Positions 26,543 through 42,951 of a stretch of 64,000 nucleotides of DNA are shown one piece after another (position 1 is the first letter of the stretch; every line of letters begins with the position of its first letter). The notes under the pieces were generated by a model. It was not told where the DNA came from, did no database searches, and worked only from the letters and a program-made list of their open reading frames with translations. The position numbers and the translations under genes were made by a program. The stretch covers positions 1-64,000 of the IMG/VR virus record IMGVR_UViG_3300027851_000016; one strand, given 5' to 3'. This DNA comes from a virus.

Positions 26543-27682
26543 ATGGCGGACCTGCTCGACTTGCTCATGGAGATGCGAAATGAAGTGCCAGACCATGTAG
26601 CATCGCAGACAGACGCGATGAAGTTTGGTTTGATGGTCAATACGTACGACCCGTTCATGGTCACGTCAGCGCTGCACAAGGAGCTGCGACGTGGCGACTT
26701 CGACCAGGCTGTGTACTGGGCGCTCGTGCTTGAGAAGCTGCGCGGGCGCTTCTTCGTTATGCGGTACGTATCGAACGTGTCGATGGAGGAGAGCCACGCA
26801 CCTGGATTGAAGACGTTCCTGGGGGAGCTGTTCATCGGGTACAAGAACACGACGTTGCTCGATGTTATGCGTGCCGTCGAAGCGTTCTGCAACTGTAGGT
26901 ACGCGAAGTACATGACAGAGGCGGAGGACTACACGTGGCAGGCTGACAGCACGATATGGGGTGGTGTGCGAGAGCATGCCAAGGAGGGTCGTAGGCTGTT
27001 CGAGCCGAAGCCTGAACTGCTAGCCAAGTGGTCGAAGAAGCTGCCGAAGACTGCCAGAGTGCCTGTGCGTGATGGGCTGTACCAGTCTGAGGAGGTCATG
27101 GCACTGCTTGAGCAGTTCATCGAGGAGAAGGATTACACGTCTGCCTTGTACATCGTGCACCTGTGCAACGTGTGGCCTGCGGTGCACAAGTACACGAAGG
27201 ACCTGCTTGTATGCTCTGACGACACCGAGGAGATGCACAGGGTTCTGAATGACAAGTTGATGAAGGAGCACTCGTTTTGGGGGTTTGACTACGAGACGCT
27301 GCTCATGCACCGCATGGATGCTGTCGGGGACATGTCTGACTGGAATGCTGGACCGACGCGCACGGATGACGAGCTGCGCGAGGTGCTGGCTGGTGTGTAT
27401 GCCGAAGTCGCAGGGAAACAGCTACGACCGATTCCGTTCTACGCAGTCGATGCGCATACGCGAGAGGGAAAGCGTGTGTGGTTGACGCAGCGCAAGCAGA
27501 TTCGACCGAATGCTCCGTGTACGGTGGCTGACCTGCGGTATGCGGCGAACTGGGTGTCGATGCTCTGGCGCAGGGAGGCATGGAAGCAGTTCGGGACGAT
27601 TCATGTTGCCTGGGAGGATGTCGTGTTGCCAGAAGACAGGTATTACAAGGCGCTCTGGAAGGGAGTGTACCCGCATGAGTAG
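26543..27682 (+). CDS. hypothetical protein, possible clamp-loader-like C-terminal domain
   Basis: ATG 26543 has a weak ribosome site. The 379-residue helical protein has HKELRRGDFDQAVYWALVLE near residue 48, reminiscent of the helical C-terminal domain of MgsA/clamp-loader subunits (..LRGSDPDAALYWLARM..). No Walker motifs are present, so it is not an ATPase. The resemblance is weak. Its end overlaps the flavoprotein start by eight bases, tying it to the cassette. Confidence 0.6.
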   Translation: MADLLDLLMEMRNEVPDHVASQTDAMKFGLMVNTYDPFMVTSALHKELRRGDFDQAVYWALVLEKLRGRFFVMRYVSNVSMEESHAPGLKTFLGELFIGYKNTTLLDVMRAVEAFCNCRYAKYMTEAEDYTWQADSTIWGGVREHAKEGRRLFEPKPELLAKWSKKLPKTARVPVRDGLYQSEEVMALLEQFIEEKDYTSALYIVHLCNVWPAVHKYTKDLLVCSDDTEEMHRVLNDKLMKEHSFWGFDYETLLMHRMDAVGDMSDWNAGPTRTDDELREVLAGVYAEVAGKQLRPIPFYAVDAHTREGKRVWLTQRKQIRPNAPCTVADLRYAANWVSMLWRREAWKQFGTIHVAWEDVVLPEDRYYKALWKGVYPHE

Positions 27683-28871
27683 GGTTCTTGTCCTCGGTGG
27701 CGGGCTTGCTGGGATGACCGTGGCAAAGGCTCTTGCAGGCAGCCACGACGTGCGGGTGCTTGAGCAGGAGGACCGACTGGGTGGCCTGCTGCGTACGTTC
27801 CGTGGCACCGTAGACGGGGTCGGTGAGTTCCGCTTCGACATCGGTGGGCATTGGCTGCATCGGGACGGGTTCTCAGGTGTGGCCGACCTGTTCTCAGGAC
27901 TGGTCGAGCACGAGCGCCATGCCTTCGTGTACGTGAACGGGAAGCATGGGCGGTTCCCGATTCAGGCGTTCTACGATGACGTGTTTGATGGGGAGACAGC
28001 CGTAAGCATCTGTGAGGAGTTGGCAAACAGGACAGACGACCAGCCCAGGTCATACGCTGACATGCTGCAGAAGAGCTATGGGGAGACGCTGTTCGACAGG
28101 TTCTTCGAGCCGTACAACCGCAAGCTGTTCGGTGTGCCAGACCTGACACCCATCAGCTTCGGTGAGTTGGAGTTGGTGCGGAACGTTAGAGTCGGAGACA
28201 AGGCGGGGTACAACAGCACGTTCCTGTATCCCGACGGGCAGGGCATCGAGTCGCTGATTGAGGACCTGAAGGATGACCGCGTCGAGTACATCCTTGATGA
28301 GATGGCAGTGCACGTCGATACGCAGGCGCACATCGTGACCTGTGCAGACGGTACCCCGTACACGTATGACGTACTCGTATCGACAGTCCCGCTCGACATG
28401 CTCACTGCGATGGTAGGCGAGCCGCTATACCTGCTGGGGTCTCAGGGACTTGTGATGAACATGGGGGTCAAGAAGAACCCGAATCACGTCGGAAAGAACT
28501 GGGTGTACTACCCAGATGATGGTCTGCCGTTCTACCGTGTCGGTCTGTATAGCGAAGCCGACCCGACTGCTGCTCCTGAAGGGTACGTGGCAATGTACGT
28601 CGAGGTGTCCACACTGCGCCCGTGGACCAACGCAGAGGTAATGCTGGGCCTGCAGAAGGTCGGGATGATTGAGAGTCCGACCGATGTGGTGCTGCAGCAG
28701 GCCGCGTACCTGCCGACGAACTACTGCTTCGCTGACCCGCGTGTTCCAGGGGTCTTGCAAGCATTCCGTTTGGCTGGTGTGCACTCGATTGGACGGTATG
28801 GGAGCTGGCACTGGTCGTCCATGCACGAGGATGTGAAGCAGGCGCTCGAACTGGCGGAGAGGATTCGGTAA
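27675..28871 (+). CDS. FAD-dependent UDP-galactopyranose-mutase-like protein
   Basis: ATG 27675 overlaps the preceding gene. The 398-residue protein starts with a dinucleotide fold LVLGGGLAGMTVAKAL (GxGxxG at ~8-13), then EQEDRLGGLLRT and DIGGHWLH, characteristic of UDP-galactopyranose mutase and related amine-oxidase-like flavoproteins. Later TVPLDML and SIGRYGSWHWSSMHED fit the FAD-binding C-terminus. It may convert or oxidise a nucleotide sugar. Mutase versus oxidoreductase activity cannot be decided from sequence alone. It opens the cassette. Confidence 0.8.
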   Translation: MSRVLVLGGGLAGMTVAKALAGSHDVRVLEQEDRLGGLLRTFRGTVDGVGEFRFDIGGHWLHRDGFSGVADLFSGLVEHERHAFVYVNGKHGRFPIQAFYDDVFDGETAVSICEELANRTDDQPRSYADMLQKSYGETLFDRFFEPYNRKLFGVPDLTPISFGELELVRNVRVGDKAGYNSTFLYPDGQGIESLIEDLKDDRVEYILDEMAVHVDTQAHIVTCADGTPYTYDVLVSTVPLDMLTAMVGEPLYLLGSQGLVMNMGVKKNPNHVGKNWVYYPDDGLPFYRVGLYSEADPTAAPEGYVAMYVEVSTLRPWTNAEVMLGLQKVGMIESPTDVVLQQAAYLPTNYCFADPRVPGVLQAFRLAGVHSIGRYGSWHWSSMHEDVKQALELAERIR

Positions 28872-29290
28872 TGATGTACGTTCGGTATCTGTGGACGGTC
28901 CTCAAGCACAAGTGGTTCGTCTTCGTTGAGTGCGCCAAAGAGGGAATCGCGTGGCGTGGGTTGATTCATGACATGAGCAAGTTCCTGCCAAGTGAGTGCA
29001 TTGCGTATGCAGAGTATTTCGAGGGTGACCCAGATGATAACGTGGCGTTCAATGCTGCGTGGGCATTGCACGTGAGGCGGAACGACCATCACTGGCTCCA
29101 TTGGCTTGTGGATGGTGAGGCGCAAGAGATGCCGTTTGAGGCTGTAGTCGAGATGGTCTGTGACTGGGTTGGGGCGGCGCGGGCGTACAAGGGTGATGGA
29201 ATTGTACCGTGGTACACCCAGAACGGTCCGAACATGGTGCTACATGCTAAGACCCGTGAACTGGTTGAGGAACTTGTGAGTGTGCGATGA
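28871..29290 (+). CDS. DUF5662 family protein (139 aa)
   Basis: ATG 28871 (or 28874) overlaps the flavoprotein stop. GLIHDMSKFLPSECIAYAEY and HVRRNDHHWLHWLVD match the His-rich pattern of DUF5662. The HD and clustered histidines suggest a metal-binding, HD-like hydrolase fold, but activity of the family is unknown. Its place between sugar genes may be incidental. Confidence 0.75.
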   Translation: MMYVRYLWTVLKHKWFVFVECAKEGIAWRGLIHDMSKFLPSECIAYAEYFEGDPDDNVAFNAAWALHVRRNDHHWLHWLVDGEAQEMPFEAVVEMVCDWVGAARAYKGDGIVPWYTQNGPNMVLHAKTRELVEELVSVR

Positions 29291-30744
29291 GACTCCTGTA
29301 CCTGCCGCTGTACACGAACAAGAACCTGAATGGGGACAGCAGCTACAACGTCGCGTCGAAGTTCATCGCGAGTGCGGTCGAGCGTGGGTGGTTCGTACAC
29401 TGGGTACTGCCCCAGGTGGGTGGTGGTAGCCGCTTCCACTATGAGGGGTCGAGGGCTGCGATTGAGAACCACCCGCAGGTCCTCGTGCATCGTGTGCCCT
29501 CCATCGAGGACCAGTACATGCAGACAGGCGTGGTGCCTGCAGACGTGTTGTTCAGGCTGTTCAGTCAGCACCAGGGCAGGTATCACATCGACGCTGTGCT
29601 CACGGAGAAGCCTGCGAGTGCGGCGTATGTGCGTAAGTTGCTCCAGCACCCGTTCACACGTCCTGCGAAGGGCAAGAACAGGTGGCTCGGTAAGACTCCT
29701 GCACTGCCCATGTTCGTTCGCGACCCGTTCACGAAGTCCCAGGAACTGCACATCATCAGCGATGTCGAGGAGGTCGAGCAGTCTGTCGGGTACCTGACCA
29801 GCTACAGCATCTTCATGTGCCAGACGGACTTCGATATGGCCTCGAAGGTCGCGAAGCGGTACCTGAACTACGGGCAGGTCAAGAAGATGCAGGCTCGGTC
29901 GGTGGTGCTCCCGCCAGGTACGGCGACGGCAGAGTTGTTGCCCGTCAGGGAGGCGGCGGTCAAGCGGGACAGGTTCACTGTACTGATTGCCGAGCGTTTG
30001 AAGAACGGTGCGCTCATGGATTCGCTCGATGCAGTGGACTACATGTTCAAGCGTGGGTACCAGATGGATGTCGTAATCAGCTCGCAGTCGGAACTGAACC
30101 GCAAGACGCTCATGAACTACCCGACTGTCTTCGAGCACGCAGAACTGCACCCAGCGAACCCGAGAGACCAGTATCTGCCGCTGGCTGCGGCGTGCCACGC
30201 AACGATTACGATGCCCTCGACGCACAGCTACCCACAGGGTCTGATGGAGCGGCTGTACTTGGGACTCGTTGCGGTGCTGCCCGACTACCCATGGGTGCAC
30301 ACGTTGTTGCCCGACTATCCGTTCGTGGTGAAGCGGAACGTGAAGTCGATGGTGGCGATGCTCAAGTGGATTGAGGAGAACTACGAGGAGGCCAAGCAGA
30401 AGGTCGCCTGGGTGCCTGGGTACATCGAGGAGCACTACGATGCCCAGTTGCTGGCGGAGAAGACGATGCGGCATATCGAGGAGACGACGGCGCTGGTTCG
30501 CGCGAGTTCGGCACCATCGAGCGGGTTCTTGGAGTTGATTGACCAGTTCGACTTCGATGAGGCAGACGAAGAGACGCTGTTTGAGTACATGAAAGCGCAT
30601 TCGACCACGGGACTGTCGTTCAACAATGAGGGGAAGACTGCTGCGTTCGGCAGCTACAAGTCGCAGTTGTTCCAAGCGATGCGGCATCGTGGGTGGGAAG
30701 ACACGTGCGAGGGTCCGTTCGTGACGATGAGGAGGAAGAGCTGA
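29287..30744 (+). CDS. GT-B fold glycosyltransferase (first copy)
   Basis: ATG 29287 overlaps the previous stop. The 485-residue protein has an N-terminal Rossmann-like start (MRLLYLPLYTNKNLNGDSSY) and a C-terminal nucleotide-sugar domain with FTVLIAERLKNGALMDSLDA and MERLYLGLVAVLPDYPW, the equivalent of the E-x7-E region of GT4-type enzymes. It most likely transfers a sugar from a nucleotide-sugar donor. Acceptor is unknown. It is only distantly similar to the second copy at 33956. Confidence 0.72.
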   Translation: MRLLYLPLYTNKNLNGDSSYNVASKFIASAVERGWFVHWVLPQVGGGSRFHYEGSRAAIENHPQVLVHRVPSIEDQYMQTGVVPADVLFRLFSQHQGRYHIDAVLTEKPASAAYVRKLLQHPFTRPAKGKNRWLGKTPALPMFVRDPFTKSQELHIISDVEEVEQSVGYLTSYSIFMCQTDFDMASKVAKRYLNYGQVKKMQARSVVLPPGTATAELLPVREAAVKRDRFTVLIAERLKNGALMDSLDAVDYMFKRGYQMDVVISSQSELNRKTLMNYPTVFEHAELHPANPRDQYLPLAAACHATITMPSTHSYPQGLMERLYLGLVAVLPDYPWVHTLLPDYPFVVKRNVKSMVAMLKWIEENYEEAKQKVAWVPGYIEEHYDAQLLAEKTMRHIEETTALVRASSAPSSGFLELIDQFDFDEADEETLFEYMKAHSTTGLSFNNEGKTAAFGSYKSQLFQAMRHRGWEDTCEGPFVTMRRKS

Positions 30745-31406
30745 TGTCGTTGTACGACAAGGACAAGATAGTTGGATGCTTCGAGAGCGAGGAGCAGTGG
30801 CGTGATGAGGCCGACGAGATAATCGCCATGCAGATGAGCTACCGCTCACACGCTTTGATGATGGGCAAGGTTGTTGACACGTTCTTCGATGTGGTCGAGC
30901 GGAACCATGGTGCAGCGACGGTTCTCGATGTCGGCTGTGGCACGGCCATGTTCCTCGACTACGTTCGTGAACAGTACGGTCTGCACCGTGTGGAGCGGTA
31001 CGTTGGGTACGAGTTGGTCACACGATTCGGGGAGAAGGCAGCGCAGAAGCTCGAAGACTATGGTGTCCGTGGAGCGATTGTGGGTGCCGACTTCTTCGAC
31101 CTGGGGACCACCGCAGCACCAGCTGACCTGGTGATTGCCTCGCAGTGTCTGAACACGGTGTTCAGCGATGACCCGCTGGCCTTCATCGCGATGGCAGTGG
31201 ACCAGCTGTGGTCGATGACGCGGCACTCGCTCGTGTTCGACCTGAAGGATGTGGCTGCTCCGAGGATTCTCGACCCGCACCTGCGGACGTACTACGACCC
31301 TGTGTACGTGTACAAGGTGTGCCGTGACCACACGGTGAACGTCACAGTCAGCCAGACCACGAAGGCGAACTTCACGGTGGTCATGTCGCGGGAGGAGCTG
31401 TACTGA
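30744..31406 (+). CDS. class I SAM-dependent methyltransferase
   Basis: ATG 30744 follows aggaggaagagctg and overlaps the glycosyltransferase stop. The 220-residue protein has SAM motif I VLDVGCGTAMFLDYV at ~60-74, an acidic strand end (GYELVTRF) and motif IV-like ADLVIASQCLN. Size and lack of a target-recognition domain favour a small-molecule or sugar methyltransferase rather than a DNA methylase. Its coupling to sugar genes supports this. Confidence 0.8.
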   Translation: MSLYDKDKIVGCFESEEQWRDEADEIIAMQMSYRSHALMMGKVVDTFFDVVERNHGAATVLDVGCGTAMFLDYVREQYGLHRVERYVGYELVTRFGEKAAQKLEDYGVRGAIVGADFFDLGTTAAPADLVIASQCLNTVFSDDPLAFIAMAVDQLWSMTRHSLVFDLKDVAAPRILDPHLRTYYDPVYVYKVCRDHTVNVTVSQTTKANFTVVMSREELY

Positions 31407-32551
31407 TGATTCTGCTTCTCGGCAAGGGGGAGGGTCTGCAGGCTCTGACCGATGTGTTTGCTGGTGAGGATGCGGTTGCACTCACTGATGCGGGCAGGAC
31501 ACCTGACGAACTGTGTGCGGATGTCCGAAGTGTCCTAGAAGTCCACGAGTTCGAGTTCGCCGTGGCTAATGGACTGTCTTGTGCGAAGGCCCTGGACGTA
31601 CTCGATGGTGTGGGTGTGCCCACGGTCGGCGCGACGACACAGGATTGGCATATCGAGATGGACAAGCCGTTCGGCAAGAAGTTGTGCGCCGAAGTCGGTG
31701 TAGGCACGAGCGAGTGGTGGACGGTGGACTTGGCTGACCTGGATGAAACGGAGTGGGAGTTTCCGTGCTACGTGAAGCATCGCAAGGCCATCGGCGGGAC
31801 GACCTCGTTCAAGGTGCACTCGAAGAAGCAGATACGAAACCTGATTCGTGCGTATGGCTACGAGCGCGGGTTCATCGTGGAGCTGCCACTTGCAGGCATC
31901 GAGTTCAGCATGAATGCGCTGATTGGTGCTGAGAACTGGCAGGTGATTGGTTGCAACTACGACATGAAGGGGCCGACAGGCAAGGTGGTCGGGAATGCCT
32001 ATGGTGCGGCTGGTGAGCATACAGCTTGGATTGAGGGGCAGCTTGCTCCGTTGTTCCAGGCGGTATGTGGGATGGGTTACCGAGGAGTGCTCGCCGTGAC
32101 GGTGTTCATGACCGACGAGGGACTTCGCATGATTGAGCTGAATGTACGTGTTGGGACAGGGTCGGGGTACACGTACCTGAACAACGTCTCGAACATGGCG
32201 GACATGCTGCGAGCCTGTGCGCTCGGGCAGAGCATCCCTGCACCGCAGTTCAAGCATCTGTACGGGCTGTCGGTCACGGTGGACTCAGGCTTGAGGCGAG
32301 AAGCGTATGACCTTGAGGTCGGGCTTCTTGAGCCGCTGGGTGATGGTGTGGTGCTGGTCGAGAACAATGTGTACGACGGGATGAGCAACGGTGCCGCCCC
32401 GTACCTACTGGTCGGGTTCGGTGACTCGTCATTGCAGAGTGTTGGAGAGACCCTGATGGAGAACTTGAGGTGTTTGGATGTCCCACTGATGTCTAAGCCT
32501 GAACTAGACCTTGACCGTTTCGATAGACTGGCGGAGGTGCTGCCACGATGA
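31406..32551 (+). CDS. ATP-grasp ligase
   Basis: ATG 31406 follows ggaggagctg. The 381-residue protein has a PurD/carbamoyl-phosphate-synthase-like order: N-terminal preATP-grasp domain, VPTVGATTQDWHIEMDKPFG, a lysine strand FPCYVKHRKAIGG, and the metal-binding MIELNVRVGTG near residue 245. ATP-grasp enzymes activate a carboxylate as acyl phosphate and join it to an amine or thiol. In this cassette an amino-sugar acceptor is plausible because a PIG-L deacetylase is next but one. The substrate is unknown. Confidence 0.82.
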   Translation: MILLLGKGEGLQALTDVFAGEDAVALTDAGRTPDELCADVRSVLEVHEFEFAVANGLSCAKALDVLDGVGVPTVGATTQDWHIEMDKPFGKKLCAEVGVGTSEWWTVDLADLDETEWEFPCYVKHRKAIGGTTSFKVHSKKQIRNLIRAYGYERGFIVELPLAGIEFSMNALIGAENWQVIGCNYDMKGPTGKVVGNAYGAAGEHTAWIEGQLAPLFQAVCGMGYRGVLAVTVFMTDEGLRMIELNVRVGTGSGYTYLNNVSNMADMLRACALGQSIPAPQFKHLYGLSVTVDSGLRREAYDLEVGLLEPLGDGVVLVENNVYDGMSNGAAPYLLVGFGDSSLQSVGETLMENLRCLDVPLMSKPELDLDRFDRLAEVLPR

Positions 32552-33213
32552 AGATTGTCGTGCACCAGCCTGTGTTCCTGCCGTACCTTGGAGTGGTGGG
32601 CAAGATTGCACACGCGGACGGGCTTGTCCTGCTCGATGACGTGCAGTATGTCCGTCGTGGGTTCATGAATCGGAACCGCATCCTGACGAAGGATGGTGAG
32701 CACTGGCTGACCGTGCCCGTTCGAAAGGCTCCGCAGGATACGCAGGTCAAGGACATCGAAATCAGCTACGAGACCGACTGGCAGCGGCAGATGAAGCGTA
32801 CGCTGGAGATGGCGTATGGGAAGGCTCCGCACTTCGAGGCAACGATGGCGGCATTGCAGCCCTTGTGGGTAGCGAAGCCCAATCACCTGATGGACCTGAA
32901 TGTTCTGCTGCTTGAGCGAGTGTTGAAGTTCTTCGGGGTCAGTGTGCCTGTGTGGTGGAGCAGTGACTTCCCCCCTGTCGAGGACCCGACGCAGCGTTTG
33001 CTGGATAGGGTCGAGCGTGTTGGTGGCACTGTCTACGTGGCTGGTGCGAACGGGAAGGCGTACATGGAACTGACGGGGGACGAACGTGTGAAAGTACAGT
33101 TCGAGGAGTATGCTTGTCCCGAGTACGCGCAGTTCAACAGCACCGAGTTCGTACCGTACCTCTCGGTGGTGGACTACATGATGAACGTCGGGGCGGTGCG
33201 GAAAGCACTGTAG
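32548..33213 (+). CDS. WbqC-family protein
   Basis: ATG 32548 overlaps the ATP-grasp stop. The 221-residue protein has the family hallmark HQPVFLPYLGVVGKIAHAD at the N-terminus, then LLDDVQYVRRGFMNRNRI and WLTVPV. WbqC-like genes recur in bacterial polysaccharide clusters and have been proposed to act in acylation of amino sugars; the reaction is not settled. This gene links the cassette firmly to glycan assembly. Confidence 0.85.
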   Translation: MKIVVHQPVFLPYLGVVGKIAHADGLVLLDDVQYVRRGFMNRNRILTKDGEHWLTVPVRKAPQDTQVKDIEISYETDWQRQMKRTLEMAYGKAPHFEATMAALQPLWVAKPNHLMDLNVLLLERVLKFFGVSVPVWWSSDFPPVEDPTQRLLDRVERVGGTVYVAGANGKAYMELTGDERVKVQFEEYACPEYAQFNSTEFVPYLSVVDYMMNVGAVRKAL

Positions 33214-33239
33214 GATTGAACAGGACAGAGGAGGCAAGG

Positions 33240-33956
33240 ATGCTCGGATTCAGTGACCAGTGCGTTCTCGTTATCAGCCCGCACCAGGATGACCTCGAAA
33301 TCGGATGCGGTGGCATCGTTCAGAAGTTCCTCGCTGCTGGGAGCGACGTGCATGTCGTGCACGGTACGCTCGTAGACCTCGCAGGCACGTATCGCAAGTA
33401 TGACAAGGCGACTGATACGTACACGACGTACACGGGTGCCCAGCGGTTCGAGGAGACTCGCAGTGCGTTGGCGGTGCTTGGTGGTGCGAGTCCTGACGCG
33501 TGGCGCGGGATAGTGGTGCACGACCCGCTGTTCAGCAGTGACAAGCACCATCGAATCGACACGGTACCGCTGTCGGAGCGTATCGAGGTGCTGGAGTCGG
33601 TTATCAGTGCGGTGAAGCCTACCGTGCTCTTGTACGCAGCTGAGTCCTCGAACCAAGACCACGAAGCGCTTGCGCGCACCGTTCGCAGTGTCATGCGCCC
33701 GCATTTCTACAGTGGCATGGTCATCGAGTACGAGATTGGTGACGAGGTGGCGTTCGTCCCGAACTTGTTCGTGCCCATGACCGACCAGGAGTTGCGCAGG
33801 AAGCTCGATGCGTTCGAGGCGTACGAGACCCAGCAGAGTGGGGACCTGCACGTCGTCAGCGAGTGCGGTATCCAGTACAAGGCACAGTACCGAGGGAAGC
33901 AGTGCTACCACCCGTATGCGGAAGCGTTCCGAGTGCTGAGGATGGTGGCGGGGTGA
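33240..33956 (+). CDS. PIG-L family N-acetylglucosaminyl deacetylase
   Basis: ATG 33240 follows gaggaggcaagg. The 238-residue protein has VISPHQDDLEIGCGG (His15, Asp17, Asp18) and SSNQDHEALA with the third zinc ligand His141. These correspond to the zinc site of MshB, BshB and LpxC-unrelated PIG-L deacetylases. Such enzymes remove acetyl from GlcNAc-linked compounds and leave a free amine. With the nearby ligase and acetyltransferase, a deacetylate-then-ligate scheme is possible. It is probably catalytically intact. Confidence 0.88.
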   Translation: MLGFSDQCVLVISPHQDDLEIGCGGIVQKFLAAGSDVHVVHGTLVDLAGTYRKYDKATDTYTTYTGAQRFEETRSALAVLGGASPDAWRGIVVHDPLFSSDKHHRIDTVPLSERIEVLESVISAVKPTVLLYAAESSNQDHEALARTVRSVMRPHFYSGMVIEYEIGDEVAFVPNLFVPMTDQELRRKLDAFEAYETQQSGDLHVVSECGIQYKAQYRGKQCYHPYAEAFRVLRMVAG

Positions 33957-35419
33957 TGCGAGTCCTGCTACCAGTCGGTGCTGTACGCGAGGGGTTCTAC
34001 GACGACGGTGTCATGCGCGTCGGGAACACGGGTATGCCAAGCATCTGGAAGGTGATTCGTGACTTCGGCAAGCTGAACAGCGACCGTGGCTGGTTCTACT
34101 ATGGGGCTGTGATGTACAGCAACAAGAACGCTGTCGAAGTGCTGCCACTGAAGGACATCAACGGCTCGCTCGTGCTGATGCACACGACCGACCGTACCTG
34201 GATTGAGGTCGGCACGTTCTACCTGACCAAGATGCTGATTCAGAAGTTCTCGTACAACGGCACGTGTCCTGTTGACTGTGTGCTCATGGGTGGCACGGTG
34301 GACGCGGCAGCATACCGCTACTACATGGCATACCGACATGGGCTGCAGCAGCGTCCGTTGCTGTTCTACCGCACGCACAATGGCGTGACCGAGAGTCCGT
34401 CGAGCAAGGAGTTGTGGTTCTCAGCGGCGAAGGACAACGCACAGGTGGTGAACAGCCTGGTGAACTTCGACCGTCTGTATCTGAGTGCTCCTCATCTGCT
34501 GGATGCGTACGTGAAGATAGCCAAGGGCTACCTGTCGTTCAGCGCGGTGAAGGACTTGATGGAACGGTTCGTGTACGCGCCGCAGGGGTCCCCTGCATTC
34601 GAGGGCGAACTGAACCTGGACAGGGGGAAGGTCGTCGGGTACTTCGGGCGGCTGAACGACACGCACAAGAATACCGACATGGTGTTCAGGGAGTTCGACA
34701 AGTTGTACAAGGCTGGTGCTGTGTCAGAGGTGCTGGTGACCAGTCCGATGGCCTCGGACAAGGACAAGCCGACGCTTGACCTGATTCCGTATGTGGACCT
34801 GAAGGTTCTTGGCATGGAGTACCTGAAGGAAGTCGAGCGTACGCGAGCGACGGTCGCGGCCTACGAGTCCATCGCCTGCCCCGTTGCGATGCTAGAGCAG
34901 ATGGCCCATGGGGTCGTGCCTGTCGTACCGAAGGACAGGATGTGGTCTCGGTCGTTCTTTGGGCATGAGTTCCCCGAGTATCCGTTCATGTACAGCAGTA
35001 AGTCGGAGATTGGGCCGATGCTGCGGCTGCTCATGGACAACGACGAGATGTACAAGATGTGGGCACAGAAGCTGTCGGACAGGGTACGTCAGCGGTACGA
35101 GTATCGAACGCTGAAGCGGTCCTTGTACGACGACATGCAGCAGCGGGTCGATGTGTACCCGAAGCCCAAGTACATGGACTTCGACCTGGAAGCGTTCCGT
35201 ACGTATAGGTTCGTGGCGGAGGCCGAAGAGTTGGCCGAGCGGCTGGGGGATGAGTTCACGTTCGACAGGTTCATGAAGGAGGCACAGCGTCTGCCCATGC
35301 GGGGTAGGGGTGGGGTGCCAGTGTTGAGCAACAAGGGTGTGCTCCGCCTGCTTGAGGCGATGGGGTACACCGACACGATGGATAGTGCAGACATTCGACT
35401 GAGGAGGACCCGTGCCTGA
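33956..35419 (+). CDS. GT-B fold glycosyltransferase (second copy)
   Basis: ATG 33956 overlaps the deacetylase stop; the in-frame start at 33863 lies inside that gene. The 487-residue protein has a C-terminal GT4-like domain: GKVVGYFGRLNDTHKNTDMV, then AMLEQMAHGVVPVVP as the donor-binding segment. This is a clearer GT4 pattern than in the first copy. Acceptor and sugar are unknown. It is followed without gap by a ParB-like gene. Confidence 0.8.
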   Translation: MRVLLPVGAVREGFYDDGVMRVGNTGMPSIWKVIRDFGKLNSDRGWFYYGAVMYSNKNAVEVLPLKDINGSLVLMHTTDRTWIEVGTFYLTKMLIQKFSYNGTCPVDCVLMGGTVDAAAYRYYMAYRHGLQQRPLLFYRTHNGVTESPSSKELWFSAAKDNAQVVNSLVNFDRLYLSAPHLLDAYVKIAKGYLSFSAVKDLMERFVYAPQGSPAFEGELNLDRGKVVGYFGRLNDTHKNTDMVFREFDKLYKAGAVSEVLVTSPMASDKDKPTLDLIPYVDLKVLGMEYLKEVERTRATVAAYESIACPVAMLEQMAHGVVPVVPKDRMWSRSFFGHEFPEYPFMYSSKSEIGPMLRLLMDNDEMYKMWAQKLSDRVRQRYEYRTLKRSLYDDMQQRVDVYPKPKYMDFDLEAFRTYRFVAEAEELAERLGDEFTFDRFMKEAQRLPMRGRGGVPVLSNKGVLRLLEAMGYTDTMDSADIRLRRTRA

Positions 35420-36230
35420 CGAGAAGCGTATCGAGATAACGTACATCAGTGTCGATGACCTGGTGCCGATGGAAGAGAACCCGAACTTCCAGTCGGATGC
35501 AGTGTTCAACAACCTGGTGGACAACATCAGCAAGATTGGGATGGTCGAACCCATCATGGTCGCCCCGCTGCGGGACGAGGATGGCGCGATTATCGAGGGC
35601 AAGTACAAGATTGTCTCTGGTGAGCATCGGTACTTTGCCTGCAAGATGCTTGACTATGAAGAGGTGCCGACCATCGTCCAGATGGACTTCGATGACGACG
35701 CGGCGCGGTTCCAGCTGGTCCGCATGAACATGCTCAAGGGCAAGCTCGACCCCGTGAAGTTCACGAAGCTGTACAACCAGATGGCAGAGAAGTACGGCGA
35801 GGAACTGACCAAGGAACTGATGGGTCTGGTCGAGGAGGCGGCGTTCAAGAACCTGTACCTGCAGGTGAAGAAGGAACTGTCGCCAGAGATGCAGGAGAAG
35901 CTCGAAGAGTCGAAGGATGACATCAAGACGGTCGATGACCTGAGTCGCGTGCTGAACGAGATGTTCAGCAAGTATGGTGACACGCTGCATCAGCACTTCA
36001 TGGTGTTCCAGTACGGCGGCAAGACCCACCTGTGGGTGCAGATGTCGAAGGACTTGAAGAAGCGGATGATTGACCAGTACGTGGAGAAGCTGAAGGCGGG
36101 GAACTTCGACATGAACGAGTTCTTCGACAAGCTCATCCTGCAGTACGGAGACGCGGTCATGGAGACCATGGAGCCGATTGCCGTAGACGAGGATGAGGGC
36201 ATCTTCGTGGATTCCGAGGGCGTGCTCTGA
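35412..36230 (+). CDS. ParB/sulfiredoxin-fold N-terminal domain protein
   Basis: The 272-residue protein has a ParB-type N-terminus: ISVDDLVPMEENPN, NISKIGMVEPIMVAP and KIVSGEHRYFACKMLDYEEV. The GEHR segment corresponds to the ParB nucleotide-binding GERR box. The middle and C-terminus are helical and acidic with no obvious DNA-binding HTH of chromosomal ParB type. No ParA gene is near, so plasmid-style partition is not supported. It may be a nucleotide-binding regulator or nuclease. GTG 35412 overlaps the previous gene. Confidence 0.75.
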   Translation: MPDEKRIEITYISVDDLVPMEENPNFQSDAVFNNLVDNISKIGMVEPIMVAPLRDEDGAIIEGKYKIVSGEHRYFACKMLDYEEVPTIVQMDFDDDAARFQLVRMNMLKGKLDPVKFTKLYNQMAEKYGEELTKELMGLVEEAAFKNLYLQVKKELSPEMQEKLEESKDDIKTVDDLSRVLNEMFSKYGDTLHQHFMVFQYGGKTHLWVQMSKDLKKRMIDQYVEKLKAGNFDMNEFFDKLILQYGDAVMETMEPIAVDEDEGIFVDSEGVL

Positions 36231-36751
36231 TGAAGTTGGTGCGCCCGTCTGTGGAGTACAAGGATAGCTACCTCGTAGGACTGCACGAGTTTCGTATCGA
36301 CGGCATCTGTGTGGACTACGATGAGGCTGCGATTGCTGAGGACTTCGAAGGGTTCGTGCAACGACAGCTTGACGACTACGACGAGTCCAAGATTCCAGTC
36401 GGGCATGTCCCGTACCTGCGGCTGTGGGCCGTGCACGACGGAGAGTTCGTAGGGCACGTCACGATTCGATGCGGGATGAACGAGGACGTGTGGAAGAAGG
36501 GTAACGTCGGGTACGCTGTGGTGCCGTCGCGTCGGAGCCAAGGGTTCGGTAGGATGATGCTCGTTGAGGCGCTTGCACGGATAGAGCGGATGTGTGGAGA
36601 AGGACACTGGCACTGGATGGTGTTGGTGGTGTGCGGTGTGGCGAACACGTGGTCACGAAAGATAGCTGAGTCGTGTGGTGGTCGCTGGGTCGGGACGCAT
36701 GAACCAGATGGAAGCAAGGTCGTGTACCTCATGCCGATAGGTGGGTGCTGA
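36230..36751 (+). CDS. GNAT family N-acetyltransferase
   Basis: ATG 36230 overlaps the ParB-like stop. The 173-residue protein has the acetyl-CoA binding signature VGYAVVPSRRSQGFGRMML (R-x-x-G-x-G) and later NTWSRKIAESCGGRWVG, typical GNAT motifs A and B. It could acetylate an amine on the cassette product, as MshD does in mycothiol synthesis, or modify another target. It is the last enzyme of the cassette. Confidence 0.85.
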   Translation: MKLVRPSVEYKDSYLVGLHEFRIDGICVDYDEAAIAEDFEGFVQRQLDDYDESKIPVGHVPYLRLWAVHDGEFVGHVTIRCGMNEDVWKKGNVGYAVVPSRRSQGFGRMMLVEALARIERMCGEGHWHWMVLVVCGVANTWSRKIAESCGGRWVGTHEPDGSKVVYLMPIGGC

Positions 36752-37233
36752 TGGATAAGCAGTACAGCGCGGAAGAGCACCAGCTGCTGGAGGCTGGACT
36801 CAAGTTCGTGCAGACGAGTGGTGTTCCCATGACGAAGGTGGCGTGGGGGCTGGCAAGCATCATCGGGAGACAGGACAACGCTGTGTACCATCGCATGCAG
36901 TCGATGGCCAGTGGCTCGTTCGACCCGACAGCTGAGCTGGACGAGGATGTGACCGACGAGGATGAACGACTCGACCGCAGGGTCGGTGAGGTCGTTGCTG
37001 CAAGAGTGGCGAGTATCAAGTCGTATGGAGCGCTCTGCGTGGTGGAGGGTACGACGCGGGCGCTGCTGCTACATGTCAGCGAGATAGCCGACGAGTACAT
37101 AGACGACGTGAACGAGTACCTGGCTGTCGGGGATGTCGTCCAGGCGATTCTCGTAGTGAGCACGAAAGAGGACAGGCTCGCCTTGTCAACGAAGCGCATT
37201 GGGACTGTCAAGCGGAAGACCCCGAAGGCGTGA
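36751..37233 (+). CDS. S1 RNA-binding domain protein
   Basis: ATG 36751 overlaps the previous stop. Residues ~75-150 fit an S1 domain: VGEVVAARVASIKSYGALCV, LLHVSEIADEYIDDV and VVQAILVVSTKEDRLALSTK. The N-terminal 60 residues are helical with VAWGLASIIGRQDNAVYHRM, possibly a small HTH. S1 domains bind RNA in ribosomal protein S1, PNPase and others. A free phage S1 protein may influence mRNA translation or decay. That is inference. Confidence 0.75.
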   Translation: MDKQYSAEEHQLLEAGLKFVQTSGVPMTKVAWGLASIIGRQDNAVYHRMQSMASGSFDPTAELDEDVTDEDERLDRRVGEVVAARVASIKSYGALCVVEGTTRALLLHVSEIADEYIDDVNEYLAVGDVVQAILVVSTKEDRLALSTKRIGTVKRKTPKA

Positions 37234-37787: not shown

Positions 37788-38000
37788 GTGGCACAGGCAG
37801 AGGCATGCGGTCAGCGAGGTCCCGCTACAGACCCGCGCAGGGACGACAGTCCAGTCCTCGTCAGGGTGACGCCCTCGTTCTTGGAGACGGTGATTGCCCA
37901 GTCAAGTCCGCCAGGATTCGCACGGTTCGTCACGTGGCGTGAGCCTGATGCGAACGGTGTGTACACGCCGATGGTCACGCAGGTGAAGTGCGATGGCTGA
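37788..38000 (+). CDS. small hypothetical protein (70 aa)
   Basis: GTG 37788 is the best start, with ggagtgacaggac upstream; earlier in-frame codons lie in the repeat region. It has VRVTPSFLETVIAQSSPPGF and is proline-rich. No family is recognised. Its end overlaps the small-terminase candidate. Confidence 0.5.
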   Translation: MAQAEACGQRGPATDPRRDDSPVLVRVTPSFLETVIAQSSPPGFARFVTWREPDANGVYTPMVTQVKCDG

Positions 38001-38634
38001 GAAGAAGGCCGCTCGTAGGCAACGCTCAGACGCGTTCTCCGACCTGAAGGCCATGTACTGCTACGGTGACATGGACAAGAAGGTCAAGGCAGGTATTGCC
38101 GTCGAGGAGATTGCCCGCTGGCTACAGGAGGACTGTTTCCAGTTGCTGGGAATCAAGAGGGACAGTCTGGTACGGAAGCTGTACAGGTACAAGGCCCAGC
38201 TGCCCGCTGCCGACCTGGTGAAGAACCCGCCCCTGTACCTGGAGAGGGCGATTGAGAAGCTCAGGCGCGGAGTGAACGAGGTCGAGGAGCTAGAGAAGCT
38301 GTACCTGCTCCAGTTGAAGCGCATCAGCATGGATGCCGAGACCGAGGAACGCATCACGAAACTGTTCAGCGGGACGAACGCTGAGATTCGGACGGCAGCA
38401 GACCTGCTCGCTAAGATGATGCAGATGAAGCAGGAACTCGGTATCGTCCAGAAGGTGCCTGACCGCATCGACCTCGGTGGTGGGGTCAACGTCGGTCACC
38501 TGGTAGACGAGGATACCGACGAGGGTACGAAGGCCAAGTTGGGACTACTGGCTGGCAAGTTGCTCGATGCGATGGGAAAGTCGGTAGCAGAGGCGGAGAA
38601 GACGCAGGACGAGGAGGATTCTGATGTTGGCTGA
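37993..38634 (+). CDS. putative terminase small subunit
   Basis: The 213-residue, mostly helical protein has an N-terminal HTH-like part (AGIAVEEIARWLQEDC and KRDSLVRKLYRYKAQLP), a coiled-coil-like centre (EVEELEKLYLLQLKRI) and KQELGIVQKVPDRIDLGGGV at the C-terminal third. Small terminases have this HTH, coiled-coil, C-tail plan and usually precede the large subunit, which follows 1.3 kb later. The call rests on position and architecture only. Confidence 0.55.
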   Translation: MAEKKAARRQRSDAFSDLKAMYCYGDMDKKVKAGIAVEEIARWLQEDCFQLLGIKRDSLVRKLYRYKAQLPAADLVKNPPLYLERAIEKLRRGVNEVEELEKLYLLQLKRISMDAETEERITKLFSGTNAEIRTAADLLAKMMQMKQELGIVQKVPDRIDLGGGVNVGHLVDEDTDEGTKAKLGLLAGKLLDAMGKSVAEAEKTQDEEDSDVG

Positions 38635-39853: not shown

Positions 39854-39985
39854 ATGAGTCTCGTACCACCGTCGAAGTTCGACCAGGGCAGGTTCGCTCT
39901 TGCATACCTGACGATTGTCATGACGGTCGCAGGGGCGTGCGGAGTCACATGGTTGGTGGCCAAGCTGTTTGGCATGCTTCCGTGA
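39854..39985 (+). CDS. very small membrane protein (43 aa)
   Basis: ATG 39854 follows aggagaggac. One hydrophobic segment (LTIVMTVAGACGVTWLVAKL) covers most of the C-terminal half. The stop overlaps the terminase GTG. No family is recognised. Confidence 0.5.
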   Translation: MSLVPPSKFDQGRFALAYLTIVMTVAGACGVTWLVAKLFGMLP

Positions 39986-42951
39986 TAGACCTGAACGACC
40001 TCCGACTGAAGCCGATGCTCGATGAGTTGACGCGTGGGTTCACGCAGTCGGACATCGAACTGCTGAAGGCCGTGCTCAAGCAGAATCCTGGCAGCGAGAT
40101 AGAGGTGCTGCAGGACCTGATGGGGTACACGTATAGGCACACGCCCGTACCGACCCGCCAGTTCATCGAGGACCCGTACTACCTGGGGCTGCAGGGTCAG
40201 GTGTTCCCGAAGCTGCTGGATGACATCGAGGAGTTGTTCGAGGGGGAGTATGTCGAGGCGGTACTCACTGGCGCGATTGGGTGGGGTAAGGCGTGCAGCC
40301 TTGACACGCGGGTACCGACACGTCATGGGTGGACGACCTTTGGTGAAGTCACGGTCGGGGACGAACTGTTCGATGAGCAGGGTAGGCTCTGTAAGGTAAC
40401 CAAGAAGACAGAAGTCATGTACGACAGGCCCTGCTTCGAAGTCACGTTCTCAGATGGGACGAAGCTGGTTGCAGATGCGGAGCATCAGTGGCTTGCATCC
40501 GAGTGGTCTGAGCGAGCTAATGCTGCGCGGAGTGGGGGAGAGCTGCATGAGCGTGTGGTCACGACTGCGGAGATGGCAGCCAGCCTGAAGCACGGTCGAA
40601 TGAACAACTGGGCTGTGCGGGTTGCAGAGGCACTGGACCTGCCAAAGCAGGTGCTACCAGTAGACCCATACGTGCTCGGTGTGTGGCTCGGAGACGGGAA
40701 CTCAGCAGACGGTGCGTTCACGTGTTTCGACCCAGAGATTGTCGAGGAGATTCGCAGGCGAGGCTACGAGGTTCGTGAGCAGCACGCTTCGCAAGGAAGG
40801 TACACGATAGTAGGGCTGAAGGTGCAGTTGCGGGAGCTGGGCGTGCTTGGGAACAAGCATGTGCCTGCCCTGTACTTTAGAGGTAGCATCGACCAGCGCA
40901 CGGACTTGCTCAAGGGTTTGATGGATACGGATGGTTCGATTGAGACTTGTGGTCGTGCAGAGTTCGTCGGTGTGAGCAAAGCACTCGTAGAGTCCGTACG
41001 CGAACTCGCTGCAAGCCTCGGGCACAAGCCTGTGTGGTCAGAAGGAACAGCACGTGTTGATGGCAAGGATTGTGGAGCAAAGTACCGAGTCCGATTCACG
41101 CCAGACACGCCTGTGTTCTGTTTGACTAGGAAGTTGGAGCGGCAACGCGTGGCGGGGAAGCAGGGACTGCGGAACAAGCGCAGGTACGTGACTGCTGTGG
41201 TTCCAGTAGAGAGTGTTCCAGTCAGGTGCATCGAAGTGGATTCACCATCGCACTTGTTCCTGGTAGGTGACTGCTTCGTCCCGACGCACAACAGCACGTT
41301 CGCTGAGATAGCCCAGTGCCGCATGCTCTACGAAATCAGCTGCCTGAGAGACCCGCAGAGGGTGTACGGACTGATGCGTGGGTCGGTCATCGTCCTGCTG
41401 AACGTCGGTGTGACGCGGACCAACGCCGAGAAGATTGTCTTCCAGGGGGTCAAGAACAAGCTGCACGCTGCCCCGTACTTCGTGGAGAAGTTCCCGTACG
41501 GGCCGTGGATGAACGAACTGAGGTTCCCGAACAACATCTGGCTGTTCCCCGCAACGCCGAGCGACAGTGGTGTCATCGGGTACAACGTCTTCGGCGGGGT
41601 CATGGACGAAGTGAACTTCATGAGCATCGTGGAGAAGTCGAACTCGTCTCGGGGTGGGACGGGTCGGTTCGACCAGGCGGAGACCCTGCACAAGTCTCTG
41701 ATTCGACGGATGAAGTCCCGATTCATGAAGAAGGGCAAGCTCCCTGGCATCCTGCTGCAGATTTCGTCTAGTCGGTACCCCGAGGACTTCACCGAGCGCC
41801 GCATCAAGGAGGCTGAGGATGACCCGACGGTCTTCGTGCGTCGGTACAGCCAGTGGGACACGTTCCCCGAGGACAGATGGACTGGGAAGCGGTTCTGGAT
41901 AAGCCTCGGAGACGGCACGGAACAGCCACGGGTGATACACGGCCCCGAGGAGCTGAAGGCGGCGGAGGACAAGGGCCTGCCCCTGTTGGATGTGCCCGAG
42001 GAGTTCGAGCGTGACTTCGAGGCTGACATCGACGCTGCGATTCGAGACCTGGCTGGTCGGCCTACGCTCACGATTCGCCCGTACATCCGCTACCGACACA
42101 AGGTGGCGGAGGCGCTGGCGCGGGGCGAGACCGAGTTGGGTCTGGTGCACCCGTTCTCGAAGACGGAGTCCACGCTGAAGGATGGCGGCTCGTTCGTACT
42201 GGAGAAGCTCGCCATCCCGAGGCTCAAGCAGCAGATTGCGAGTGGCACACTGGGGGACGTGGAACTGGCAGCAGCCAAGGACGAGCTTGCGTTCCTGAAG
42301 AGCAAGCCCCGCTTCGTCCATGCTGACCTCTCGGTCACGGGGGACAGCACGGGTATCGCGATGGGTTACGTCCGTGGGTACCGTGAGGTGGTCAGACGGA
42401 ACGAGGCGGGGGAGCAGTACACGACGCGTATGCCCATCGTCGTGATTGAGTTCATGCTCAGGGTGAACCCACCGCAGAACGGCGAGATTGAGTTCGCTGA
42501 CGTGCGGTCGCTCGTACTGGAGCTGCGGAGCTACGGGTACCCGATTCGAAGCGTCACGTTCGACTCGTTCCAGTCCCGTGACTCGATGCAGGCGTTCAAG
42601 CGGGTAGGAATCGACTCGTCGCACCTGTCGGCGGACACGAACCTTGAGGTGTATGCTGCGTACAAGGATGCGCTCTACGAGGACAGGTTCATCACGTACC
42701 AGTACGACAAGCTGTTCGAGGAGACCATCCGACTGGAGAAGAACGAGAAGACGGGAAGGGTGGACCACCCTGCGAACGGTTCGAAGGACGTGGCAGATGC
42801 GGTCGCTTGCGTATGCTACGGCTGCGTCAAGGACGGCATCAGGTCCCCCGCTCCGCCTCCGTCGTACGGCGACATGTCCACGCCACGACAGTCGTCAGCG
42901 GTGCCCACGATGGGGGAAGTGGAACCGAGAGTTCCCGAGATAGTCACGTAG
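39982..42951 (+). CDS. terL: terminase large subunit containing a class 3-type intein
   Basis: GTG 39982 overlaps the preceding stop; a longer in-frame start (39937) would run through that gene. The 989-residue precursor splices to ~655. Walker A is rebuilt from GAIGWGK (to Lys103) and STFAEIA (from Ser438). Walker B is VFGGVMDEVNF and the nuclease domain has VHADLSVTGDS, TFDSFQSRDSMQ and SKDVADAVA, with Asp residues for two metals. It packages DNA into the prohead through the portal and cuts concatemers. The start of the virion module follows. Confidence 0.93.
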   Translation: MIDLNDLRLKPMLDELTRGFTQSDIELLKAVLKQNPGSEIEVLQDLMGYTYRHTPVPTRQFIEDPYYLGLQGQVFPKLLDDIEELFEGEYVEAVLTGAIGWGKACSLDTRVPTRHGWTTFGEVTVGDELFDEQGRLCKVTKKTEVMYDRPCFEVTFSDGTKLVADAEHQWLASEWSERANAARSGGELHERVVTTAEMAASLKHGRMNNWAVRVAEALDLPKQVLPVDPYVLGVWLGDGNSADGAFTCFDPEIVEEIRRRGYEVREQHASQGRYTIVGLKVQLRELGVLGNKHVPALYFRGSIDQRTDLLKGLMDTDGSIETCGRAEFVGVSKALVESVRELAASLGHKPVWSEGTARVDGKDCGAKYRVRFTPDTPVFCLTRKLERQRVAGKQGLRNKRRYVTAVVPVESVPVRCIEVDSPSHLFLVGDCFVPTHNSTFAEIAQCRMLYEISCLRDPQRVYGLMRGSVIVLLNVGVTRTNAEKIVFQGVKNKLHAAPYFVEKFPYGPWMNELRFPNNIWLFPATPSDSGVIGYNVFGGVMDEVNFMSIVEKSNSSRGGTGRFDQAETLHKSLIRRMKSRFMKKGKLPGILLQISSSRYPEDFTERRIKEAEDDPTVFVRRYSQWDTFPEDRWTGKRFWISLGDGTEQPRVIHGPEELKAAEDKGLPLLDVPEEFERDFEADIDAAIRDLAGRPTLTIRPYIRYRHKVAEALARGETELGLVHPFSKTESTLKDGGSFVLEKLAIPRLKQQIASGTLGDVELAAAKDELAFLKSKPRFVHADLSVTGDSTGIAMGYVRGYREVVRRNEAGEQYTTRMPIVVIEFMLRVNPPQNGEIEFADVRSLVLELRSYGYPIRSVTFDSFQSRDSMQAFKRVGIDSSHLSADTNLEVYAAYKDALYEDRFITYQYDKLFEETIRLEKNEKTGRVDHPANGSKDVADAVACVCYGCVKDGIRSPAPPPSYGDMSTPRQSSAVPTMGEVEPRVPEIVT
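40291..41292 (+). other. intein (334 aa) with LAGLIDADG endonuclease, terminase P-loop
   Basis: The intein runs from Ala104 to Asn437; starting at Ala rather than Cys105 restores GWGKST exactly. Block B has Trp after His (AEHQWLAS), block F has Cys (VRCIEVDSP) and block G ends VPTHN, giving the class 3 W-C-T set; +1 is Ser. LAGLIDADG motifs are LGVWLGDG (40675-40698) and LLKGLMDTDG (40906-40935). Because a Cys is at position 2, a class 1 reading starting there is possible but leaves an Ala in the P-loop. Confidence 0.85.

What the first reader, a model, noticed from the sequence alone, without database searches (positions are those of the whole stretch)
27675..36751. Phage-borne amino-sugar or glycoconjugate assembly cassette
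Seen: ten genes without gaps larger than 26 bases encode a mutase-like flavoprotein, DUF5662, two GT-B glycosyltransferases, a methyltransferase, ATP-grasp ligase, WbqC protein, PIG-L deacetylase, ParB-like protein and GNAT acetyltransferase. Known: WbqC, PIG-L, glycosyltransferase and ATP-grasp genes occur in glycan and glycoside pathways; some mycobacteriophages glycosylate virion proteins. Inference: the set could build and attach a methylated, acylated amino sugar to capsid proteins, phage DNA, or a host surface component. I know of no described phage pathway with this combination.
Basis: partly seen in the sequence, partly recalled or inferred. Interest (0 to 1): 0.82.

Follow-up and report, generated by a model that had tools for sequence, protein, structure and literature searches.

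The report
Phage sugar cassette likely modifying DNA
A virus of bacteria carries a tight block of ten genes that makes and attaches an unusual amino sugar, and comparison with dozens of other phages suggests the sugar goes onto the virus's own DNA just before packaging, although the chemical attachment point is unknown and nobody has measured it.

Summary
Ten co-directional ORFs (27675-36751, largest gap 26 bases) encode the named enzymes, and the operon runs further on both sides. The window is part of a 91-kb virus record. The novelty claim is too strong: Vibrio phage VH2_2019 has PIG-L, methyltransferase, WbqC, glycosyltransferase and ParB in one run. I found a conserved unit of GT4-like glycosyltransferase, ParB-like protein, small terminase and large terminase. 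The glycosyltransferase lies within 3 kb upstream of this ParB in 49 of 67 testable loci. The ParB subfamily is nearly phage-restricted (3 hits in 84,980 species genomes). Phage relatives of the PIG-L protein lie in such cassettes or in TET + TET-associated-glycosyltransferase cassettes. The modelled glycosyltransferase carries an extra C-terminal domain with winged-helix topology. Against it: no known base handle (hydroxymethylase, TET, C5-methyltransferase) in this record; these phages avoid 6-bp palindromes, unlike T4; and much of the published restriction resistance of the relative DLP3 reflects absent sites. Virion-protein glycosylation and a mycothiol-like small glycoside remain open. 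Nothing here was measured chemically.

The parts
26543..27682 (+). 379-aa protein related to the C-terminal (tetramerisation/collar) domain of MgsA/RarA, without the AAA+ part; same family as the ~370-aa gene heading the cassettes of phages RcZahn, KarBoss and RHph_Y1_11
   Evidence: profile of that family finds this ORF, E 2.5e-5, two co-linear blocks; hhalign E 1.5e-4, probability 52%; shared motifs SAxxKxxRRG and DxHTxxG(K/R); one relative weakly matches MgsA_C
27675..28871 (+). FAD-dependent mutase/oxidoreductase, UDP-galactopyranose-mutase-like
   Evidence: Pfam Amino_oxidase 2e-12; PDB 4dsg UDP-galactopyranose mutase E 1.6e-24 over 3-386
28871..29290 (+). DUF5662 protein, probably a passenger
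   Evidence: Pfam E 5e-35; most relatives in other phages are not in this cassette
29287..30744 (+). GT1: retaining GT4-like GT-B glycosyltransferase with an added C-terminal domain (residues ~410-485) of winged-helix topology
   Evidence: phrog_30253 8e-22; AlphaFold2 pLDDT 87.6, pTM 0.89; Foldseek PglA, PimA, BshA, E to 3e-12; isolated C-terminal domain has no significant hit but the top-ranked hits are mostly winged-helix domains
30744..31406 (+). class I SAM methyltransferase, substrate unknown
   Evidence: Methyltransf_25 1e-8
31406..32551 (+). ATP-grasp ligase (PurD / D-Ala-D-Ala-ligase-like), presumed carboxylate-amine ligase
   Evidence: NCBIfam purD 6.5e-8, below cut-off; PDB VanA 4e-4 and PurD 7e-4; Pfam ATP-grasp 8e-5
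32548..33213 (+). WbqC-family protein
   Evidence: Pfam 3.5e-59; relatives in VH2_2019 and DanielleIgnace close to the GT
33240..33956 (+). PIG-L-family N-deacetylase with intact PHxDD motif and a downstream His
   Evidence: Pfam 3.6e-15; motifs PHQDD at residue 14 and NQDH at 138
33956..35419 (+). GT2: second glycosyltransferase of the same family, directly upstream of ParB
   Evidence: phrog_30253 1.9e-8; aligns with GT1 and the ParB-linked GTs of other phages
35412..36230 (+). ParB-like protein of phage-restricted subfamily phrog_26387
   Evidence: phrog 3.8e-67, also matches ParB domains fused to phage DNA methyltransferases, phrog_498 6e-15, PADLOC MTase_II 3.6e-9
36230..36751 (+). GNAT N-acetyltransferase
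   Evidence: Acetyltransf_3 2.3e-5, Acetyltransf_1 9.8e-5
36751..37233 (+). S1-domain protein, same operon, role unknown
   Evidence: Pfam S1 1.5e-5; overlaps GNAT gene by 1 base
37993..38634 (+). putative small terminase / adaptor, conserved downstream of ParB in the related cassettes
   Evidence: phmmer 3e-11 to JP1; family profile 1.7e-52
39982..42951 (+). large terminase subunit, apparently interrupted by an intein at the Walker A motif
   Evidence: phmmer 2e-106 to Summit TerL; family profile 3.3e-193; intein judged by eye

Best explanation
The operon builds and installs a tailored amino sugar on phage DNA. Proposed order (inferred unless marked): the mutase-like flavoprotein reshapes a host UDP-sugar; a GT4-type glycosyltransferase (fold modelled here) with a winged-helix-like tail transfers an N-acetyl-hexosamine to a base in phage DNA, with the ParB-like protein as DNA-engaging partner; PIG-L removes the N-acetyl group; the amine and hydroxyls are then dressed by the ATP-grasp ligase (aminoacyl or similar), WbqC, methyltransferase and GNAT; the second GT may add a second sugar. 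It sits just upstream of the terminase so that DNA is modified before packaging. The base handle is unknown. Shown here: gene content, conserved synteny, phage restriction, model of GT1. Inferred: acceptor, order of steps, chemistry.
For: GT-ParB-small terminase-TerL order recurs in Rhodobacter, Agrobacterium, Stenotrophomonas and Rhizobium phages; Vibrio VH2_2019 and KarBoss have GT, ParB, one gene, TerL (by annotation or profile); the Arthrobacter phages have GT and ParB adjacent near the record end, so TerL linkage was not shown there. In the combined set of metagenomic virus contigs and phages the GT is within 3 kb upstream of this ParB in 49/67 loci and TerL within 3.5 kb downstream in 42/68; 27 phage loci chosen through DUF5662 gave no GT. 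All 11 phage records hit by GT1 are among the 22 hit by ParB. The 17 phage records hit by the PIG-L protein are Stenotrophomonas and Vibrio phages with GT-ParB cassettes (8) and Acadian-type mycobacteriophages (9), whose one opened member has a ParB-annotated gene, Tet_JBP (E 1.4e-4, sub-threshold), TAGT (6.5e-38), PIG-L, kinase, TerL. ParB domains of this kind are fused to DNA methyltransferases, lie beside DNA methyltransferase genes in L092 and L114 (with Pfam tally), and accompany other phage DNA-hypermodification enzymes (PMC12783734). GT1 has an extra C-terminal winged-helix-like domain. Related phages DLP3 and DLP5 have restriction-resistant DNA: 0/15 and 4/36 enzymes cut (PMC7326821; PMC5834331). 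All cassette proteins look soluble.
Against: No thymidylate-synthase-type hydroxymethylase, TET/JBP, C5-methyltransferase or ThyX in this record, and none is common to the family, so no acceptor hydroxyl on DNA is accounted for. This phage and eleven relatives avoid 6-bp palindromes (observed/expected 0.36-0.82; T4 0.96), so a T4-like full cloak is unlikely; the TET/TAGT phage also avoids them (0.48), so the test does not exclude partial modification. DLP3 has no site for 10 of the 15 enzymes used; only EcoRI 7, XbaI 1, NdeI 4, ClaI 18 and SmaI 68 sites are informative. The C-terminal domain match is not statistically significant (best E 0.56) and GT charge is not consistently basic. The MgsA-like gene is not always adjacent.
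Confidence: 0.55

Rival explanations
1. Virion-protein glycosylation: the GTs decorate capsid or tail proteins with the amino sugar, as reported for some mycobacteriophages.
For: Cytosolic GT4 enzymes can glycosylate proteins; two GTs and sugar tailoring enzymes would suit a surface glycan that varies between phages; terminase and structural genes lie directly downstream.
Against: GT1 tblastn finds no mycobacteriophage GT. The constant partners are ParB and terminase, not a particular virion gene. PIG-L relatives sit in TET/TAGT DNA cassettes.
Confidence: 0.18
2. A mycothiol/bacillithiol-like small glycoside: GT4 makes a GlcNAc-glycoside, PIG-L deacetylates it, the ATP-grasp ligase adds an amino acid and GNAT acetylates it, giving a protective or signalling small molecule.
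For: The logic GT4 + PIG-L + ligase + GNAT is that of MshA-D and BshA-C; BshA and MshA are among the Foldseek hits; BshB1 is the nearest NCBIfam model for PIG-L (E 1.4e-9).
Against: BshB1 score 38 against a cut-off of 182.5; no cysteine ligase (MshC/BshC) model was hit in the cassette proteins; ligase and GNAT have no detected relatives in related cassettes while ParB and terminase linkage is constant; GT1 carries an extra domain absent from the ~360-380-residue reference enzymes.
Confidence: 0.1
3. Host-surface or glycolipid modification (seroconversion or superinfection exclusion).
For: WbqC, UGM-like and epimerase/aminotransferase genes occur in O-antigen loci; the DLP3 and DLP5 authors suggested LPS or membrane modification.
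Against: No membrane segment in any cassette protein, no polyprenyl GT, flippase or polymerase among the family hits; the ParB subfamily was found in only 3 of 84,980 species genomes, unlike lysogenic-conversion cassettes; tight terminase linkage.
Confidence: 0.07
4. Two unrelated things side by side: a DNA-acting GT-ParB core and a loose collection of moron genes (mutase, DUF5662, ATP-grasp, GNAT) without one common product.
For: Window UGM, ATP-grasp, methyltransferase and GNAT have no detectable relatives in the related loci; DUF5662 behaves as a passenger.
Against: One compact operon with 1-8 base overlaps; related cassettes carry analogous but different sugar enzymes: SDR, aminotransferase, UDP-GlcNAc 2-epimerase, UDP-sugar dehydrogenase.
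Confidence: 0.1

Closest known systems
Vibrio phage VH2_2019 locus (also PG28, V-YDF132)
   Same: PIG-L, WbqC, methyltransferase, second WbqC, GT of this family, ParB, then TerL
   Different: No mutase, ATP-grasp, DUF5662 or GNAT identified there; function unpublished in the library searched; ParB only ~28% identical
Delepquintavirus DLP3/DLP5/Summit, RcZahn, KarBoss cassettes
   Same: PIG-L and methyltransferase, GT, ParB, small terminase, TerL in a row; an MgsA-C-like gene upstream in several; DLP3/DLP5 DNA reported restriction-resistant
   Different: Epimerase/dehydratase and aminotransferase in place of mutase, WbqC, ATP-grasp and GNAT
TET/JBP + TAGT phage DNA hypermodification (Acadian-type mycobacteriophages)
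   Same: PIG-L, glycosyltransferase and a ParB-annotated gene immediately upstream of TerL
   Different: There the handle is a TET dioxygenase and the GT is TAGT (PF20691); neither is found here, and its ParB is not detected by our ParB profile
Phage T4 glucosyl-hydroxymethylcytosine system
   Same: GT-B glycosyltransferases acting in DNA modification (works-like comparison only)
   Different: No dCMP hydroxymethylase; the GT profile finds nothing in the T4 stretch holding both GTs; no palindrome avoidance in T4
Mycothiol / bacillithiol biosynthesis
   Same: GT4 + PIG-L + ligase + GNAT logic
   Different: No cysteine ligase; equivalog cut-offs not met; phage terminase synteny

Membership tests
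GT-ParB-terminase cassette family (defined here) | GT of phrog_30253 family directly upstream of ParB of phrog_26387 family | tested here: met
   GT2 overlaps ParB by 8 bases
GT-ParB-terminase cassette family (defined here) | small terminase and TerL just downstream on the same strand | tested here: met
   37993-38634 and 39982-42951
TET/TAGT DNA hypermodification | TET/JBP dioxygenase | tested here: not met
   PF12851 absent from the record
TET/TAGT DNA hypermodification | C5 cytosine methyltransferase | tested here: not met
   PF00145 absent from the record
TET/TAGT DNA hypermodification | TAGT glycosyltransferase (PF20691) | tested here: not met
   no Pfam TAGT match to either GT; TAGT seed finds nothing else among the loci
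TET/TAGT DNA hypermodification | PIG-L deacetylase and ParB-like gene beside TerL | tested here: met
T4-type hydroxymethyl-base glycosylation | thymidylate-synthase-family hydroxymethylase | tested here: not met
   PF00303 absent from the record
T4-type hydroxymethyl-base glycosylation | modified bases in virion DNA | not testable with these tools
   needs LC-MS; palindrome avoidance argues against full protection
CmoX/CmoY carboxymethylcytosine system | CmoX, a C5-cytosine-methyltransferase homologue | tested here: not met
   PF00145 absent; system described in PMC12783734
Mycothiol/bacillithiol biosynthesis | MshB/BshB equivalog deacetylase | tested here: not met
   BshB1 38 bits against cut-off 182.5
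Mycothiol/bacillithiol biosynthesis | cysteine ligase MshC or BshC | tested here: not met
   no such match among the ten proteins
Virion-glycosylating phages | glycan on capsid or tail protein | not testable with these tools
   needs proteomics
Canonical ParB partitioning protein | full ParB (TIGR00180) score above cut-off | tested here: not met
   36.1 bits against 58.45
UDP-galactopyranose mutase | similarity over the full FAD-enzyme length | tested here: met
   4dsg E 1.6e-24 over residues 3-386; activity not tested

The most novel reading that the evidence does not exclude
A widespread, undescribed phage DNA-glycosylation system (GT4 + ParB-like partner) that works without any known base handle: either a new enzyme makes the acceptor, or the sugar is transferred directly to a canonical base, with a phage-specific set of enzymes tailoring the sugar.
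Probability: 0.35. Interest if true: 0.85.

Novelty: new variant of a known kind. Interest (0 to 1): 0.62.

Why it matters
If the cassette modifies DNA, it defines a family seen in tens of phages from at least six host genera (Rhodobacter, Agrobacterium, Rhizobium, Stenotrophomonas, Vibrio, Arthrobacter) whose base handle is not any known one. It would help explain the restriction-resistant DNA of Delepquintavirus phages and give the ParB-like proteins beside phage DNA-modifying enzymes a testable role. Cultured members exist, so the question can be settled with one nucleoside mass-spectrometry experiment.

Tried and rejected
DNA-level search for relatives in phages: none. Single-protein scans of viral contigs with WbqC, GT1 and ATP-grasp: nothing. 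A scan with the GT alignment failed for lack of conserved blocks. ThyX as a common handle: only 11/45 records, a divergent copy just after TerL in Summit, with relatives only in L063 and L066; rejected as a universal handle. DUF5662 as a handle: widespread without the cassette. GT isoelectric point as a DNA-binding clue: inconsistent. Palindrome avoidance as a test of modification: not decisive, because the TET/TAGT phage avoids palindromes too. DLP3_141, annotated 'thymidylate synthase', matches phosphatase models instead. P-loop kinase of the TET cassette: not in this record or the related phages. Solved relatives of WbqC and the methyltransferase: none. Two key papers on phage TET and on computational DNA-modification systems are not in the library. 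A file of the whole record was not available.
Full report
Observation. The window is bases 1-64000 of a 91,152-base virus record. Ten ORFs at 27675-36751 lie on one strand with the largest gap 26 bases. The ATP-grasp and GNAT matches are weak. The operon extends upstream to 26543 and downstream to at least 37532.

Who else has it. No DNA-level relative exists in 50,697 phage records. By protein, GT1 finds 11 records and ParB 22; the first set is contained in the second. Annotated neighbourhoods show glycosyltransferase, ParB, a ~200-aa protein and TerL in Rhodobacter RcTiptonus, Agrobacterium JP1, Stenotrophomonas Summit and Rhizobium RHph_Y1_11/TM16; RcZahn has the same across the ends of its record. 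Vibrio KarBoss, whose genes are unannotated, shows the same order by profile. Vibrio VH2_2019 has PIG-L, methyltransferase, WbqC, GT, ParB, one gene, then TerL. In the Arthrobacter phages GT and ParB are adjacent at the end of the record, so linkage to TerL was not shown.

Scale. A scan of 2.9 million virus contigs with the ParB alignment gave 65 loci. With profiles built from the window and phage seeds, over these and the phage loci, the GT is within 3 kb upstream of ParB in 49 of 67 loci that are long enough, and TerL within 3.5 kb downstream in 42 of 68; PIG-L occurs in 20 loci, WbqC in 9, SDR in 25 and an aminotransferase in 15. A few loci are near-duplicates. As a rough background, 27 phage loci chosen through DUF5662 contain no GT of this family, and PIG-L only in the contig already known. 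In 84,980 species genomes the ParB subfamily appears 3 times, all in metagenome-assembled contigs: it is essentially a phage gene. Other neighbours include UDP-GlcNAc 2-epimerase and UDP-sugar dehydrogenase, and in single loci DNA methyltransferases. So the sugar enzymes vary and the GT-ParB-terminase core is constant.

Why DNA. First, position: the core lies between replication genes and terminase. Second, PIG-L: the 17 phage records hit by the window PIG-L are 8 Stenotrophomonas and Vibrio phages with these cassettes and 9 Acadian-type mycobacteriophages. In the one mycobacteriophage I opened, PRodriguez, the row is a ParB-annotated gene, a protein matching Tet_JBP below the curated cut-off, a TET-associated glycosyltransferase (PF20691, 6.5e-38), PIG-L, a P-loop kinase, then TerL. 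Third, ParB: the window ParB matches ParB domains fused to DNA methyltransferases, its relatives lie beside DNA methyltransferase genes in L092 and L114 (Pfam tally), and ParBc genes accompany the CmoX/CmoY DNA-hypermodification genes (PMC12783734). Fourth, GT1: the model (pLDDT 87.6) is a GT4-like GT-B enzyme with an added C-terminal domain of the order helix-strand-helix-helix-strand-strand, the winged-helix order. Modelled alone (pLDDT 70.8) it keeps that order; Foldseek gives no significant match, but the top hits are mostly winged-helix domains. I treat this as suggestive. Fifth, DLP3 and DLP5, which carry a cassette of this family, are reported with DNA resistant to 15/15 and 32/36 restriction enzymes (PMC7326821; PMC5834331).

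What weakens it. The record has no thymidylate-synthase-type enzyme, TET/JBP, C5-methyltransferase or ThyX, and no such enzyme is common to the family. I checked DLP3's sequence: ten of the fifteen enzymes used have no site in its genome; only EcoRI 7, XbaI 1, NdeI 4, ClaI 18 and SmaI 68 sites are informative, so the published inference rests on five enzymes. The window phage and eleven relatives avoid 6-bp palindromes (observed/expected 0.36-0.82 against about 1.0 for other 6-mers). T4 does not (0.96), lambda does (0.65), and the TET/TAGT phage does (0.48). A complete T4-like cloak is therefore unlikely; site-specific or partial modification is not excluded.

The upstream gene. The 379-aa protein at 26543 belongs to the family of ~370-aa proteins that head the RcZahn, KarBoss and Rhizobium cassettes (profile E 2.5e-5; hhalign; alignment). 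Its motifs resemble the C-terminal domain of the replication-associated ATPase MgsA/RarA (weak Pfam match for one relative; otherwise my reading of the motif). A replication link would suit a post-replicative DNA modification.

Mechanism and rivals. The proposed pathway is in the best explanation; its chemistry is inferred from family functions. The same enzymes (GT4, PIG-L, ligase, GNAT) would also suit a mycothiol-like small glycoside, which is why that rival is kept. Virion-protein glycosylation is the main rival; nothing here excludes it. A host-surface role is least likely: no membrane segment, no lipid-linked pathway genes, almost no prophages.

Verdict. Observation confirmed; interpretation partly supported. 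As a kind it is a new variant of phage DNA hypermodification if the DNA reading is right (0.55). No paper in the library searched describes the GT-ParB-terminase unit; the library lacks most subscription journals, so I cannot claim it is undescribed everywhere.

Noticed in passing
window 39982-42951 and 12299-14716: Both the TerL and a superfamily II helicase appear to carry inteins at the Walker A motif (GWGK|ACSLDTRVPT..., GYGK|QQALDSLLW...); the helicase ORF has LAGLIDADG and Hint matches.
   Followed up: partly
L014 813-1688 and 1707-2438 (Mycobacterium phage PRodriguez gp2, gp3): Annotated 'DpdA-like tRNA-guanine transglycosylase' and 'galactosyltransferase' match Tet_JBP (sub-threshold) and TET-associated glycosyltransferase; the annotation of this phage group may be wrong.
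   Followed up: partly
L152, L153, L151 (Stenotrophomonas phage DLP3): DLP3 lacks all sites for 10 of the 15 restriction enzymes used to infer modified DNA; the resistance is partly site avoidance.
   Followed up: yes
L028-L033 (Rhodobacter phage RcZahn): 42 of 64 six-base palindromes are entirely absent from the 101.6-kb genome, very strong avoidance.
   Followed up: partly
L151 7296-7976 (DLP3_099 'Erm'): The gene called an erythromycin-resistance methylase lies inside the sugar cassette; methyltransferases in the same place occur in Summit, RcZahn and KarBoss, and it has no Pfam match; it may be a sugar methyltransferase.
   Followed up: partly
L037 15918-16973 (Summit, just after TerL): A divergent ThyX-like protein (E 7e-7 for the DLP3 copy) directly downstream of the cassette in Delepquintavirus; a possible base-handle enzyme for that group.
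   Followed up: partly
window 46484-47809 and 48265-50049: Two paralogous structural-looking proteins share the N-terminal sequence VADWVVxxxGDHxGxxV, probably virion or receptor-binding proteins.
   Followed up: no
window 35412-36230: The ParB-like protein also matches the ParB-fold serine kinases SerK and SbnI, so a kinase role is conceivable.
   Followed up: no
L114 6002-9364: A ParB of this subfamily is flanked by two DNA-methyltransferase-like genes instead of a GT.
   Followed up: partly
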